From NCBI RefSeq assembly GCF_009766095.1, contig NZ_LMUD01000016.1:237515-301514 (forward strand): a DNA stretch of 64,000 nucleotides, read 5' to 3'. Under the pieces are notes generated by a model that did no database searches, had not been told where the DNA came from, and saw nothing but the letters and a program-made list of their open reading frames with translations. This DNA is from Granulicella sp. S190. Lineage in GTDB: Bacteria > Acidobacteriota > Terriglobia > Terriglobales > Acidobacteriaceae. Position 1 is the stretch's first letter. Each line of letters starts with the position of its first letter. Shown piece after piece: positions 14,801 through 24,900 of the stretch. The position numbers and the translations under genes are program-made.

Positions 14801-17800
14801 TTCGATGGCCTGGGGTATGCGAGCCGCGAGGTCTGCCGCAATCGGCGTCTCGAAGAGCCAGCGTATAGGGAACTCCACACCGAGACGGCGGCGCACGCGA
14901 CTGACGACACGGGTAGCTTGTAAGGAATGGCCGCCGAGCGTGAAGAAGTTGTCGTCGACGCTGATCCGTGGAAGATTCAGCACCTCTGCATAGATCTCGC
15001 AGATCGCGGTCTCCGCTTCGGTGGAAGGTGGAAGATAGGTTGCGGTACGCCGCTCAGGCTCGGGGAGCGCTTGCCGGTCGAGCTTTCCGTTGGTGGTCAG
15101 GGGCAGGGCGGGCAGCAACGTGAAGCTGCTAGGCGTCATGTAATCGGGGAGTACACGCTGCAGATGTTGCCGAGCTCTCTCGATGAGCTTCTGTGGGCCT
15201 TGGCTGGCAAGGATTCTTTGAGGAGCTGCGAGAGCAGTGTACTCGGGACGGCGGCCATAGATGGAATAGATAGCCGTGCCCCGCAGAACTTCATCCTGCT
15301 CTACATGCAGCGTGAAGCCGGCCATCGTGAGTGTTTCCACGATGAGCTCCATCCGGCCTTCCAGGTCGTGGACTTCGACCACGACCTGCTGAATTTTATG
15401 CCAGTCCTCCGCAGAGATTCCCTGAAGTACGTCCAGTTCGCTCTTCTCGACATCCACCTTCAGCAGATCGATCGTTTCGATCTGCTCTTTCGCGATGATC
15501 TCGGAGAGGGTTCGCAGCTCGCAGGTGAATTGCTCCGATTCCAGGCGATCTTTCACCAGCTCCTCAATGGCTGCGCCGGGCATTTCCAGATGGGCCGTTT
15601 CATTGCTCAGGTATGTTGCAAGTGTCTGTTGATCGTCACGGCTGTCGGCAAAGCGACCGGACATCACCGAATTGTGTTTGTACCAGACAAACTCAGCGGT
15701 TCCACTTTGGCTGGACAGCCCGCAGTTGAATACGGTCGGAGTGGTGGTGGAGTGGATCGCGGCATTGGTTCGTAAGGCATCGAATAAAGGTGGAATCGGT
15801 TCGAAGGCATAGATCTTCGTTGCCGGAGCGTATTGGCTGACGAAGACGGTAAACAGGCCGATGTTGGCGCCGACATCGAAAACACACCCGGCTTCGGGAA
15901 GCGTGATGCCGTGTTTAAGGTAGATCTGGTCTTCGAAGATCTCGCGGTAAAGAAAATCGGCTTCACTGTGGTTGCGGCACTTGATGGCCAGACCGCTGGG
16001 GAGTTCATAGCAATCGTCTGGTTTCAACTCTCCGGACTGCTCCAGATGCAAAACACGGGTAAGGGCGTTGAGCGAGCGATCCGGCACGATGTACGCGGCT
16101 AACTGCTTTTCTCCAGCGACGTCGGCTCGGGTAATCACGGCAGCCTGGGCTATTCCTTCACAAGTCATCAACGCGGCTTCGATCTCACCCAGCTCAATCC
16201 GGAAGCCACGGACCTTGACCTGCTCATCCGCCCTGCCTAAATACTCGAGAACTCCATCGGTGCGCCACCGCGCGCGATCGCCGGAGCGATACATCCGGGC
16301 TCCGGATATTGGGGAGTAAGGATTCGCAACAAAGCGACCTGCGGTCAGCCCGGGACGGTTCAAATAGCCGCGCGCCAATCCCGCACCGGCTACGTACATC
16401 TCGCCCGGCACACCCACAGGAACCGGTTCAAGAGCGTCATCGAGGACATAGACGCGCAGGTCCGGAATGCTGCGTCCCACGATGCTCGCTGTTTCACAGG
16501 CCATGTCACGGCTCAAGGGCTGATAGGTGACGTGTACGGTCGTTTCCGTGATGCCGTACATGTTGATCAGCGCTGGCTTGCCGTCCCCGTGCTGTTCAAA
16601 CCAGGGAGCGAGGCGGCGCGGATCCAGCGCTTCGCCGCCGAAGATCACGAACTTCAGGCTCAAACCGTCGGATGGGCCAAGAAGAAATTGATAAAACGCG
16701 GAGGGGGTCTGATTCAGTACCGTCACGTTCTCACGCTGTAACAGCATGAGAAAATCCTCCGGGGATCGCGTCATCCAGCGTGGAACAATGACCAGCCGGC
16801 CACCGGTCGTCAGGGAGCCCCACATCTCCCAAACGGAGAAATCAAAAGAAAACGAGTGGAAGAGTGTCCATACATCTTCGGTGCCGAAGTCAAACCATGG
16901 CCGTGTGGAAGAGAACAGCCGCGACACGTTTTCATGCGTGACAACGACGCCTTTGGGTTTCCCGCTCGATCCAGAGGTATAGATCACATAGGCGCCGCTC
17001 CTTCCATCCAGGAAGATGGAGGGGTTGCGTTCGGGAGTGCCATCAACGATGGATTCGAGCTCCCGCAGGGTGGGCGCATCCAGTACCAGCGTCGGTTTCG
17101 CATCTTCCAGCATGAATGCGATTCGCGCTGCGGGGTACTCGGGGTCGAGCGGAAGGCAAGCTGCGCCTGCTTTGAGAACAGCGAGGGCCGCAACCACCAT
17201 CTCGATAGACCGCTCAATTTGGATGGCGACCAGTGGTTGTTGTCCGGAAACACTCTGAATACGTGCGATAAACCGGTGGGCTAGGCGGTTCGCGCGTTCG
17301 TTCAGCTCGGCATAGGTTATCTTTTCAGAGCCCGATACCAGCGCAATCGCATGAGGAGTTCGCGCTGCCTGCGCCTCAAAAAGCTCCTGTAGCTGAAGCT
17401 CAGGTTTAGGAGATAGCAGATCCACCGGCTCCGTTCCTTGAAATCCTTCGATCAGATGTTGACGCTCTTCGGCGGTCAGAATCTCGAGCTCATGCAGGCC
17501 GGCATCGGGTGACGCGACCGCCGCGCGCAACAGGCGTATAAAGCGTTCTCCGGCCGACTCGATCGTCTTCCTGTCGAATAAATCCACGCTGTACTCAAAG
17601 ACGCCTTCCATTCCGAGCGGATCGCGGTGGGAGCCATAGCGTTCGTGAAGGCTCAGCATCAGGTCGAACCGCGCAATATCCCATGGCAGGGGTTCGGGCC
17701 GAATCACGACACCGTCAAGATGCAGGTCGGCATCGGGCGTGTTCTGCAGTGCGAGCATGACCTGAAACAGGGGCTGTCGCGCGAGGGAACGTTCGGGCTG

Positions 17801-21949: not shown

Positions 21950-24900
21950 TGACCTTCTCCCAGCACAGCGGTAGTTCCGCTATGCATCTGCGCGGGTCTG
22001 CGCCGCAGTAAAGGCACACGTGTTTCTGTGCGTTGGGGCAAGCGCTCCGCAAGATTCGCCACCTCCGGTGTTTCGAAGAGAAGACGGATTGGCATGTCCA
22101 CGCCCAGAGCAGCCCTGAGCCGACTGCTAACGCGGGCGGCATTCAGGGAATGGCCTCCCAAGGCAAAGAAGCTATCGTCGATCCCGACCTTCTCCACCCC
22201 CAACACTTGCGAGTAAATCTGGCAGAGGGTTGCTTCCACGGAAGTGCGGGGAGCACGATAGAGTGCACTCGCTATTTGCGGCTTCGGCAATGCACTGACA
22301 TCCAGCTTTCCGTTGGTGGTCAGCGGTAGGCTGGTGAGCAGGGTGAAGCTGCCCGGCATCATATAGTCCGGCAAGATGCGCTGGAGGTGTTGCCGCGTTT
22401 TCTCGATAAGCTGCCGCGATCCCTGGGTGGGAATGCTTCTGGCAGAGGCTGCAGGTGCGGCATACTCCGGACGGCGTGCGTAGATGGAATGAAGAGCGGT
22501 GCCCCGCAGAGCGACGTCCTGTTCTACATGCACAATAAAACCGGCTATTTTCAGAGTTTTCGCGATTCGTTCCAACCGGCCGTCCATATCGTGGACTTCG
22601 ACCACGACCTGTTGGATCTTGGGCCAATCCTCCGCGGAGATTCCCTGGAGCACATCCCACTCACTCTTCTCAACATCCACCTTCAGAAGGTCGATCGTTT
22701 CGATCTTCTCTTCGGCAAGGATCTCTGAGATTGTCCGCAGTTCGCAGAGGAACCGCTCTGATTCCATGCGATTCTCTGTCAGCTCTTCGAGAGCTGCGCT
22801 GGACACGGCAAGATGTGCCATCTCGTTGCGCAAATAGACGCCGAGGGTCTGTTTATCGGAGTAGCTATCGGAAAAGCGTCCGGACATTACCGAGTTGTAC
22901 TTGTACCAGACAAACTCTGCGGTTCCATGCTGGCTCGACAGACCGCAGTTGAATACTTTGGGCATTACAGTGGAATGGATCGCAGCATTTGTGCGCAGGT
23001 CGTCAAACAACGGCGGAATCGGTTCGAAGGCGTAGATCTTCGTCGCGGGGGACCGCTGGCTGACGAAAGTGGTAAACATTCCTATGTTCGCGCCCACATC
23101 GAAGACGCACCCGGCTTCGGGAAGCGTGATGCCGTGTTTCAGGTACGTTTGCTCTTCGAAAATTTCGCGACACAGAAAATCGGCTTCGCTGTGGTTGCGA
23201 CACTTGACGGTCAGGCCACTGGACAGCTCGTAGCAGTCGTTCGGTTTAAGCTCTCCGGAATGTTCCAGATGTAGAACACGCGTAAGCGCGCTGAGCGAGT
23301 GTTCCGGCACGATGTATGCCGCCAACTGCTCCTCTCCGTTGGCGTCAGCGCGGGTGATTACCGAGGCCTGGGCTATGTCCTCACAGTCCATCAACGCCGC
23401 TTCGATTTCGCCCGCTTCAATACGGAAGCCGCGTATCTTGACCTGGGTATCAGCCCGGCCAGCATACTCCAGAGTCCCATTCGAGCTCCGCCGCGCCAAA
23501 TCACCGGACCGGTACATGCGCTCACCGGGCTTGTGGGCGTAGACATCCGGGAGAAATCGTTCTGCGGTGATCCTCGGCTGGTTCAGATAGCCCCGGGCAA
23601 GTCCCGCTCCGGCTACATAGAGTTCCCCAGTCACGCCTGGGGGAACCGGTTCGAGGAAAGAATCCAAAACGTAGACGCGAAGATCAGGAATATTCACGCC
23701 AATCGGGCTTCGACTCGTCATCCTGGACATCTCGGCGGTTATGCATTCGTAGGTCACATGGACGGTTGTCTCCGTAATACCGTACATGTTTACAAAAGAG
23801 ACTTCGTCTCCATAGACACCAAACCACGATTCCAGCCATGTCGGATTCAGTGCTTCGCCACCGAAGAGGATCAGGCGCAGGCTGGACCCTTTGCATTGCT
23901 CCGCCGAGAGACGGCGAAACGCTGAGGGAGTTTGATTCAGAACCGTTACCTTTCGCTTTTTTATAAGCGCGACGAATTCTTCAGGCGATCGGGTGATCGC
24001 GCGAGGTACGATAACGAGTTTTCCGCCGGTTGTCAGCGGGCCCCAGATCTCCCAAACGGAGAAGTCGAAAGAGAATGAATGGAACAGTGTCCAGGTATCC
24101 TCAGAACCAAATTCAAACCAGTGGTTTGTCGCCGAAAAGAGCCGTGTGATATTGCCATGGGTGACGACAACACCTTTCGGCTTCCCGGTCGAACCGGAGG
24201 TATAAATTACGTAAGCCGGAACGGATGGGTGAATGGCTATAGCAGGATCATGTATCGGTGAATCTGGCCCCTCTTGCAACTCTGGACTATCGGAGGTGAG
24301 AACGAGGGATGGTCTCGCGTCCGAAATCATGTAGGTCAGTCTCGTTTCCGGGTACTGTGGATCCAGCGGCAGATAGGCGGCGCCTGTCTTGAGCACGGCC
24401 AGAGCGGTCACGATCATGTGGATCGACGGAGCCATACGAATGCCGACGATGCTCTCAGGTCCTATGGCTTGCGTGATTAGGCGGTGAGCGATCCTGTTGG
24501 CACGTGTGTTCAGCTCGGCGTAGGTGACTTCCTCATCCTGAAATACAAGGGCGGTTGCGTGAGGAGTTCGCGCTGCCTGCGCAGCGACCAATCCTGACAA
24601 TGTGTCCACGGAGAACGCACTCGTTGGGCCGTTGTATCCCAACAAGCGTGCCTTTTCGCGCGGGCTGAGAATGCGCAATGTCCGCAGGGGAACCTTCGGC
24701 CTTTCGGTGATGTCACTCAACAGCGTCTCGAAGTGGCGGGACATCGCCTTCATCCTGGCGCGCTCGAAGAGACCGCGGTTGTACATCCAATAGATCTTCA
24801 GTTGGCCGGCTTCTTCCACCGCATACACTTCCAGATCGAAACGTACGCGGAGTTCTGTTCCTGTCACCGGCTCCACAATCAATCCCGCTAATCGTCTTTC

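What the first reader, a model, noticed from the sequence alone, without database searches (positions are those of the whole stretch)
15238..23320. FkbM-type methyltransferases inserted into Thr-activating A domains
Both FkbM-type inserts (22460-23320 and 15238-16100) sit between A8 and A9, the position normally used by N-methyltransferases, and only in A domains whose eye-read code is Thr (DFWN[I/L]GMVH). FkbM enzymes are O-methyltransferases, and KtzH of the kutzneride pathway is a known case of an A domain interrupted by a side-chain O-methyltransferase acting on Ser. The inference is an O-methyl-Thr-forming interrupted A domain built from a different methyltransferase family. The third Thr module (18870-21935) lacks the insert and serves as an internal control.
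Basis: partly seen in the sequence, partly recalled or inferred. Interest (0 to 1): 0.78.

Follow-up and report, generated by a model that had tools for sequence, protein, structure and literature searches.

The report
Peptide-synthetase modules with built-in O-methylation
Two threonine-loading modules of a bacterial peptide-building enzyme carry a spliced-in methyltransferase that very probably caps the threonine's hydroxyl with a methyl group; related built-in enzymes occur in several other bacterial groups, so it is a sound new example of a known design rather than a new principle.

Summary
Two of the eight A domains in this NRPS cluster, both with the Thr code DFWN[I/L]GMVH, carry a ~296-aa FkbM-family methyltransferase (Pfam E 1.7e-16 and 8.7e-18) between A8 and A10; a third Thr A domain has none. 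Three other A domains carry ordinary N-methyltransferase (NMT) inserts.

"FkbM means O-methylation" is not safe on its own: EreM, an FkbM enzyme, N-methylates. I therefore tested it comparatively. Of 32 FkbM-interrupted A domains collected, 21 have an assignable code, and all 21 are Thr, Ser, Asp, Asn or Glu. NMT-interrupted A domains are mostly Leu, Val, Gly or Ala (12 of 16 assignable). One Nostoc cluster holds a Thr-NMT module directly before a Thr-FkbM module, so N-methyl-Thr presumably has its own enzyme. One FkbM-interrupted Glu module sits in a gene set resembling the AMB pathway, where AmbE's methyltransferase is reported to O-methylate; the published A-domain residues of AmbE are spaced as in the window modules (586).

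Best reading: side-chain O-methylation of carrier-bound Thr (0.8), chemically unproven. An FkbM-type O-MT domain in an NRPS module is already published (hangtaimycin HtmB1), so this is a new member of a known kind.

The parts
21946..30393 (-). NRPS1, 2815 aa: C-A(NMT)-T-C-A(Thr, FkbM)-T
2..21949 (-). NRPS2, runs off the window's left edge: C-A(Thr)-T, C-A(Thr,FkbM)-T, C-A(NMT)-T, C-A-T, C-A-T followed by a further C-superfamily domain (E-like by eye), C-A(NMT)...; beyond the window the assembly has a run of about 96 N inside the last NMT insert, then T-TE
   Evidence: the E-like reading is by eye
22411..23298 (-). FkbM insert 1 (about 296 aa) in the A domain of NRPS1 module 2
   Evidence: limits by alignment; PF05050 aa 2432-2619
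23401..24600 (-). A core of NRPS1 module 2, code DFWNLGMVH (Thr)
15188..16075 (-). FkbM insert 2 (about 296 aa) in the A domain of NRPS2 module 2
   Evidence: limits by alignment; PF05050 aa 2025-2198; TIGR01444
16178..17374 (-). A core of NRPS2 module 2, code DFWNIGMVH (Thr)
18870..20539 (-). Uninterrupted Thr A domain and T of NRPS2 module 1 (internal control)
26401..27651 (-). NMT insert (about) in the A domain of NRPS1 module 1 (code DAFFLGGTF)
10867..12100 (-). NMT insert (about) in the A domain of NRPS2 module 3 (code DILQLGEVW)

Best explanation
The A domains of NRPS1 module 2 and NRPS2 module 2 activate L-Thr and load it on the following carrier (T) domain. The FkbM-type domain spliced into the C-terminal A subdomain then moves a methyl group from SAM to the side-chain oxygen of the carrier-bound threonine, giving O-methyl-Thr at two of the three Thr positions. 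Shown: domain identity, insertion site, intact SAM-motif and other invariant residues, a confident class I methyltransferase model, and that every assignable host code in the collected set is polar. Inferred: Thr specificity (from the code), action on the T-bound residue (as reported for other interrupted A domains), and oxygen rather than nitrogen as acceptor.
For: (1) Profile identity. (2) Host comparison: FkbM hosts 21 of 21 assignable codes Thr/Ser/Asp/Asn/Glu, 11 of 32 unassignable and left out; NMT hosts 4 of 16 assignable polar and 12 of 16 Leu/Val/Gly/Ala, 2 of 18 unassignable; Fisher p about 1e-6; within the window's own phylum 6 of 6 against 1 of 13, p about 3e-4 (codes). Code-to-residue assignments are recalled. 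(3) Nostoc UHCC 0926: a Thr-NMT module followed by a Thr-FkbM module; P. polymyxa M1: two Thr-NMT modules and one Glu-type FkbM module. (4) AMB-type cluster L079: A(Ala)-T-C, two TauD-like frames, A(Glu)-FkbM-T-C-T. AmbE activates Glu (PMC4357302, passages) and its MT is reported to O-methylate a hydroxyl of tethered Glu (PMC10880069, passages). AmbE's mutated A-domain residues D644 and K1230 lie 586 apart, as in both window FkbM modules; two NMT modules 687-689, two bare modules 290-293. (5) HtmB1 module 16 FkbM-type MT assigned to O-methylation (PMC10624959, passages). (6) Insert model pLDDT 92.9; solved FkbM protein 2py6 Z 16.6, rmsd 2.2 over 170 residues.
Against: No product or assay exists for this cluster. 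EreM shows that an FkbM enzyme can methylate backbone nitrogen (PMC9259500). AmbE itself was not available: that its MT is FkbM-type is inferred from L079 and from spacing, and equating D644 with the pocket Asp is my assumption. The PF05050 searches rang in only 3 and 2 of 14 control genomes; the full list of controls is not shown, so if P. aeruginosa is among them this would speak against AmbE being FkbM-type. HtmB1 was assigned by elimination, and its authors did not exclude that the deletion inactivated the enzyme. Asp, Asn and some Glu-type hosts have no hydroxyl and no TauD gene in the stretch fetched, so their acceptor is unclear. The survey HMM was seeded with members whose assignable hosts are polar (partly checked), and rows are related to one another, so p-values are only indicative.
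Confidence: 0.8

Rival explanations
1. The FkbM insert N-methylates the amino group of carrier-bound Thr, as the A8-A9 position usually implies and as the FkbM-family RiPP enzyme EreM does on amide nitrogen.
For: EreM is an FkbM-family backbone N-methyltransferase (PMC9259500, passages); the insertion site is the one used by NMTs.
Against: In the Nostoc and Paenibacillus loci Thr modules with ordinary NMT inserts exist beside FkbM modules, so N-MeThr presumably has its own enzyme. N-methylation needs no particular side chain, yet 0 of 21 assignable FkbM hosts are Leu/Val/Gly/Ala while 12 of 16 NMT hosts are. The window cluster itself has three NMT inserts.
Confidence: 0.1
2. The insert methylates something other than its own Thr, for example a neighbouring residue, a residue hydroxylated in trans, or a side-chain carboxyl in the Asp/Glu relatives.
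For: FkbM hosts include Asp, Asn and Glu codes; some carry TauD-like oxygenases next door (L017, L043, L079, L080, L105) and others show none in the stretch fetched (L074, L075, L076, L081, L014, L015).
Against: For Ser/Thr hosts a hydroxyl is already on the loaded residue, and no TauD was found in the fetched stretches of the Ser/Thr loci (but M. bryophila has one farther away). [quoted passage not shown]
Confidence: 0.05
3. The inserts are inactive or purely structural remnants.
For: None specific; no activity data.
Against: Both inserts keep every column that is invariant in the 19-row alignment of which they are part, including motif-I residues, the E-P pair and K217, E224, E245; they stay in frame and insert 2 models with high confidence.
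Confidence: 0.05

Closest known systems
HtmB1 module 16 MT domain (hangtaimycin, Streptomyces)
   Same: FkbM-type (DxGxNxG) methyltransferase domain inside an NRPS module, assigned to O-methylation (PMC10624959, passages)
   Different: Host residue and exact position within the A domain were not stated in the passages seen; assigned by elimination; different organism and product
AmbE (AMB biosynthesis)
   Same: MT listed after the A domain of a Glu-activating module and reported to O-methylate; A-domain residue spacing 586 as in the window modules (PMC4357302 and PMC10880069, passages)
   Different: Acceptor is carrier-bound Glu hydroxylated by two oxygenases; AmbE sequence not examined here; the insert of the AMB-type relative L041/L079 is 39.5% identical to the window insert
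KtzH A4-Ms-A4 (kutzneride)
   Same: A domain interrupted between a8 and a9 by a side-chain O-methyltransferase acting on a hydroxy amino acid (PMC11355689, passages)
   Different: Ser rather than Thr; MT family of KtzH not tested here
ColG and LynB3 O-MT inserts (cyanobacteria)
   Same: O-methyltransferase inserted into an A domain (PMC10127204, passages)
   Different: LynB3's O-MT is described as resembling arginine methyltransferases, and both carry a second, N-methylating insert
TioS A4-M-A4 (PDB 5wmm)
   Same: A-M-A architecture; 637 residues aligned to the model of the whole window domain, though at rmsd 13.7
   Different: Backbone N-methyltransferase; by sequence its match to the window domain ends at residue 435 of 809, before the insert

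Membership tests
FkbM methyltransferase family (PF05050 / TIGR01444) | Profile match above the curated cut-off | tested here: met
   61.2 and 65.5 bits against cut-off 22.7; TIGR01444 101.1 against 37.7 for insert 2, the only one run
FkbM methyltransferase family (PF05050 / TIGR01444) | DxGxNxG SAM motif and conserved acidic/K-E positions | tested here: met
   DVGANIG in both; invariant columns D78, G80, E103, P104, K217, E224, E245 in 19 rows
FkbM methyltransferase family (PF05050 / TIGR01444) | Fold of a solved FkbM protein | tested here: met
   2py6 Z 16.6, rmsd 2.2 over 170 residues; other class I methyltransferases score alike, so the fold alone is not specific
FkbM methyltransferase family (PF05050 / TIGR01444) | O-methyltransferase activity | not testable with these tools
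   no assay; EreM shows that the family is not exclusively O
Interrupted A domain with side-chain methyltransferase (KtzH kind) | MT inserted between a8 and a9 of a complete A domain followed by T | tested here: met
   A8, insert, A10, T order; in NRPS1 the AMP-binding_C match covers positions 1-38 of 76, ahead of the insert
Interrupted A domain with side-chain methyltransferase (KtzH kind) | Host A domain for a residue with a methylatable side-chain atom | tested here: met
   code DFWN[I/L]GMVH in both; Thr assignment recalled, not assayed
Interrupted A domain with side-chain methyltransferase (KtzH kind) | SAM-dependent methylation of the T-bound side chain | not testable with these tools
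   needs enzyme assay
Interrupted A domain with side-chain methyltransferase (KtzH kind) | Same methyltransferase family as KtzH's M domain | not tested
   KtzH sequence not available in the collections used
Interrupted A domain with backbone N-methyltransferase (TioS kind) | Insert of the Methyltransf_11/12 type, about 400 aa | tested here: not met
   At the inserts only PF05050 and, weakly, Methyltransf_22 match; Methyltransf_11/12/25 match the NMT insert of NRPS1 module 1 instead; spacing 586 against 687-689 in NMT modules

The most novel reading that the evidence does not exclude
FkbM inserts form a distinct, widespread class of 'side-chain O-methylating' interrupted A domains (Thr, Ser, Asp, Asn, Glu hosts) that can be told from N-methylating ones by sequence alone. 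The insert with its A8-A10 flanks behaves as a cassette copied between A domains, and in this cluster it masks two of three Thr hydroxyls so that tailoring enzymes encoded next door (glycosyltransferase, carbamoyltransferase) act on the remaining one.
Probability: 0.25. Interest if true: 0.62.

Novelty: new member of a known kind. Interest (0 to 1): 0.46.

Why it matters
If right, FkbM versus NMT inserts give genome miners a simple sequence rule for calling O- or N-methylation in peptide assembly lines, which are easily confused because the insertion site is the same. It predicts O-methyl-Thr twice in one peptide and offers a compact (about 300 aa) insert for engineering side-chain methylation. 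The family's known N-methylating member (EreM) makes a direct assay worthwhile.

Tried and rejected
Inference from the family name alone: rejected because of EreM. Ser/Thr swap between two Methylocystis bryophila records with an otherwise identical FkbM module: tempting as a natural experiment, dropped because the DSM 21852 record shows nine A domains in a row with the same Ser code and the same 481-base patch, which looks like an assembly fault or gene conversion; L103 was left out of the tallies and the tree. L043 (Rhizobium rhizoryzae) as an AmbE orthologue: weakened, because its carriers are T-T before C, unlike AmbE; L079 fits better but has no TE in the same frame. Apparent break of NRPS2 beyond the window: it is a run of N, not a frameshift. 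Claim that FkbM inserts are Thr-specific in general: rejected. Insert 2 alone against PDB sequences gave no methyltransferase (best E 0.015, polyubiquitin); the 19-row profile gave weak matches to other methyltransferases (best E 0.0004). Phylum of the window: I take it to be Acidobacteriota from gene content (recalled), but two searches of plasmid records with window proteins did not confirm it, so 'own phylum' is what the tool calls it; Acanthopleuribacter (L004) was therefore left out of the own-phylum test when it was redone (6 of 6 against 1 of 13; with it 7 of 7).

Rows dropped: 11 of 32 FkbM hosts and 2 of 18 NMT hosts without a recognisable code; seven further Glu-code FkbM hits (L093-L097, L100, L101) and duplicate fetches were not tallied; NMT hits without an A core in the same frame (L004, L014, L064, L069, L071) were not tallied. 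Seed-bias check: a plain PF05050 search in 317 genomes of the own phylum (match list cut short, and several inserts already known to us do not appear in it) showed, among listed matches in open frames over 900 aa, the two window inserts, G190 and G281 (already in the set), and G302 and G310, in which no A domain was found.

Literature: ten full-text searches in an open-licence library; of the papers listed (titles and abstract starts seen) none was recognisably about an FkbM insert in a Thr A domain. The 2020 survey of interrupted A domains (PMC8341866) and a 2019 puwainaphycin paper were not held, so the class may be described there. Three further papers were looked at by passages and gave nothing on FkbM inserts (PMC13252402, PMC10949194, PMC2613160).
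Full report
Setting. The window lies in a 5.05-Mb, 99.77% complete genome, G000:C8:237515-301514. I take it to be an acidobacterium from its gene content (recalled; not established by a call). Two adjoining minus-strand genes encode an NRPS: NRPS1 (21946-30393, 2815 aa) and NRPS2 (2-21949, open at the window edge). The rest of NRPS2 lies outside the window: a run of about 96 N inside the last NMT insert, then carrier and thioesterase. Genes for a carbamoyltransferase, a glycosyltransferase, a cupin_8 protein and an ABC transporter follow within about 12 kb.

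Check of the observation. Both FkbM inserts are real and far above chance: PF05050 E 1.7e-16 and 8.7e-18, TIGR01444 E 7.1e-29 for the second. They sit between A8 and A10. Compared with the bare Thr domain of NRPS2 module 1, each adds about 296 aa: the distance from the pocket Asp to the A10 Lys is 586 residues in both FkbM modules, 290 and 293 in two bare modules and 689 and 687 in two NMT modules. All three Thr-type domains read DFWN[I/L]GMVH by alignment; the pocket positions and the meaning Thr are recalled knowledge.

Cassette history. The two FkbM inserts are 78.5% identical in protein, whereas the A cores of the three Thr-type domains are about equally distant (61.9, 61.9, 64.1%). The A9-A10 stretch is 67.3% identical between the two interrupted domains and 40.0 and 49.1% against the bare one. 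Per 100 columns, DNA identity of the two interrupted modules is 65-82% from about A8 to A10, 40-74% along the A core and 41-60% beyond A10. So insert plus flanks appear to have been copied as a unit. Apart from the own genome, none of the 119 other genomes had a match at E <= 1e-15, so the insert is rare among close relatives.

Why family alone is not enough. In PMC9259500 (passages) the FkbM-family enzyme EreM puts methyl groups on backbone nitrogen, although 29 FkbM proteins from MIBiG clusters are documented or thought to act on oxygen (four of them with experimental evidence). The question had to be decided by other evidence.

Survey. A profile of ten NRPS-embedded inserts (A2) was run on 347 genomes of the own phylum (9 with a match at E <= 1e-30, own included) and, at E <= 1e-60, on 296 of the class of the Streptomyces solincola genome (4), 198 of the phylum of a Microscillaceae genome (1), 200 of the family of G503 (7), 200 of the family of G642 (19), 18 of the order of G281 (1) and 41 of the class of G249 (4). 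Groups overlap, and many matches are stand-alone enzymes or FkbM domains outside A domains. Named records came (60 plasmid records with a match), and the single genome-contig scan (7 loci); I opened only some of the plasmid records. Embedded inserts with a host code: Thr in the window (two), Nostoc UHCC 0926, Methylocystis bryophila S285, L083; Ser in Acanthopleuribacter, Eleftheria terrae, L039, L047, L082; Asp in L021-L023; Asn in L020; Glu-type in L014, L015, L041, L043, L084, L085, L092; unassigned L011, L016, L017, L019, L028 (partial), L045, L087, L089, L102, L104, L105. L103 was dropped.

Control. NMT-interrupted A domains from the same phylum (11 of 247 genomes with a match) and from the Nostoc and Paenibacillus loci read mostly Leu, Val/Ile, Gly and Ala, with one Asn and three Thr. 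Polar against small/hydrophobic hosts: FkbM 21 to 0, NMT 4 to 12, Fisher p about 1e-6; by distinct codes 14 to 0 against 3 to 8, p about 1.5e-4; in the own phylum alone 6 to 0 against 1 to 12, p about 3e-4. The sequences are not independent, so the p-values are indicative. A side-chain acceptor explains this pattern; a backbone-nitrogen acceptor does not.

Side-by-side modules. In Nostoc UHCC 0926 a Thr module with an NMT insert (A at 13947, NMT at 15327 of L010) is followed by a Thr module with an FkbM insert (A at 18674, FkbM at 20003). In Paenibacillus polymyxa M1 two Thr-NMT modules lie before and after a Glu-type FkbM module. Where N-methyl-Thr is presumably wanted, the ordinary NMT is used.

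Characterised relatives. AmbE activates L-Glu on its first carrier (PMC4357302, passages), and its MT is said to methylate the 4-hydroxyl of tethered Glu after two oxygenases act (PMC10880069, passages). L079 (actinomycete) encodes A(Ala)-T-C, two TauD-like frames and A(Glu)-FkbM-T-C-T, resembling the published gene set apart from the exporter type and the missing TE. AmbE's A-domain mutant positions D644 and K1230 are 586 residues apart, equal to the window FkbM modules if D644 is the pocket Asp. AmbE itself was not examined, and the PF05050 control genomes that rang were only Caulobacter, Haloferax and Sulfolobus; whether P. aeruginosa is among the 14 controls is not shown. HtmB1 module 16 of hangtaimycin has an FkbM-type domain assigned to O-methylation by elimination (PMC10624959, passages). 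Puwainaphycins A-E contain O-methyl-Thr (PMC4219810, passages), so the predicted residue exists in nature; their genes were not given in the passages seen.

Oxygenases. TauD-like frames lie in the fetched stretch of five FkbM loci (L017, L043, L079, L080, L105) out of the 24 stretches searched. All five have Glu-type or unassigned codes. None was found in the stretches of the Ser/Thr loci, but the M. bryophila plasmids have one farther away; none was found for the Asp/Asn loci either, so for those the acceptor stays open.

Structure. Insert 2 alone models at mean pLDDT 92.9 and aligns with the solved FkbM protein 2py6 at Z 16.6, rmsd 2.2 over 170 residues, among many class I methyltransferases of like score. 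The whole A-FkbM-A domain models at 87.9; 5wmm (TioS A-M-A) aligns over 637 residues but with rmsd 13.7, so the relative domain placement differs or is uncertain. By sequence, the best stretch in the 60 solved chains listed (of 64 at E <= 1e-40) ends at or before about residue 440 of 809, before the insert, except for two rows of one PKS-NRPS hybrid that reach 459.

Tree. In a 51-row tree of FkbM domains the two window inserts pair at 100/100. Actinomycete Ser and Thr inserts form one supported group (97/92), the Asp inserts with L014, L015, L102 and L104 another (100/97), and the AMB-type Glu inserts with L043 a third (100/96, including one row without an A domain). The deep order is unresolved, so the nearest kin of the window pair is not settled.

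Verdict. O-methylation of carrier-bound Thr is the most likely function (0.8). It is a new member of a known kind: interrupted A domains with side-chain methyltransferases, here of the FkbM type, for which at least one NRPS-embedded example is in print.

Noticed in passing
G000:C8:226479-237500 (left of window, locus L072): Downstream of the NRPS: thioesterase end, carbamoyltransferase, a protein with a sub-threshold GDSL match, a glycosyltransferase, cupin_8 protein, ABC transporter; suggests a glycosylated and carbamoylated peptide.
   Followed up: partly
G000:C8 about 237420-237515 (just outside the window's left edge): Run of about 96 N inside the NMT insert of NRPS2 module 6, so the gene looks split in the assembly.
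   Followed up: yes
L106 (NZ_AP027150.1 75000-110500): Methylocystis bryophila DSM 21852 plasmid shows nine consecutive A domains with one identical Ser code and a 481-base patch identical in all; strain S285 has diverse modules. Likely assembly fault or massive gene conversion.
   Followed up: partly
L017, L019, L087, L089, L105: FkbM-interrupted A domains with the odd code SSRD[L/M]AMGI (no Asp at position 235), in actinomycetes and in a genome of the window's phylum; TauD-like oxygenase next door in L017, L080 (the L019 region) and L105. Substrate unknown.
   Followed up: no
L014 and L015: Bradyrhizobium LCT2 and Paenibacillus polymyxa M1 plasmids carry similarly ordered hybrid PKS-NRPS lines (Ser-like, Cys-like, Glu-type with FkbM, beta-Ala-like codes) across two phyla.
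   Followed up: no
L016, L045: FkbM inserts in A domains of proteins annotated as MupA/Atu3671 FMN-dependent luciferase-like monooxygenases (Nostoc, Streptomyces).
   Followed up: no
window 34430-39703 (-): 1757-aa protein with NHL repeats, MBG and Ig-like domains beside the cluster.
   Followed up: no
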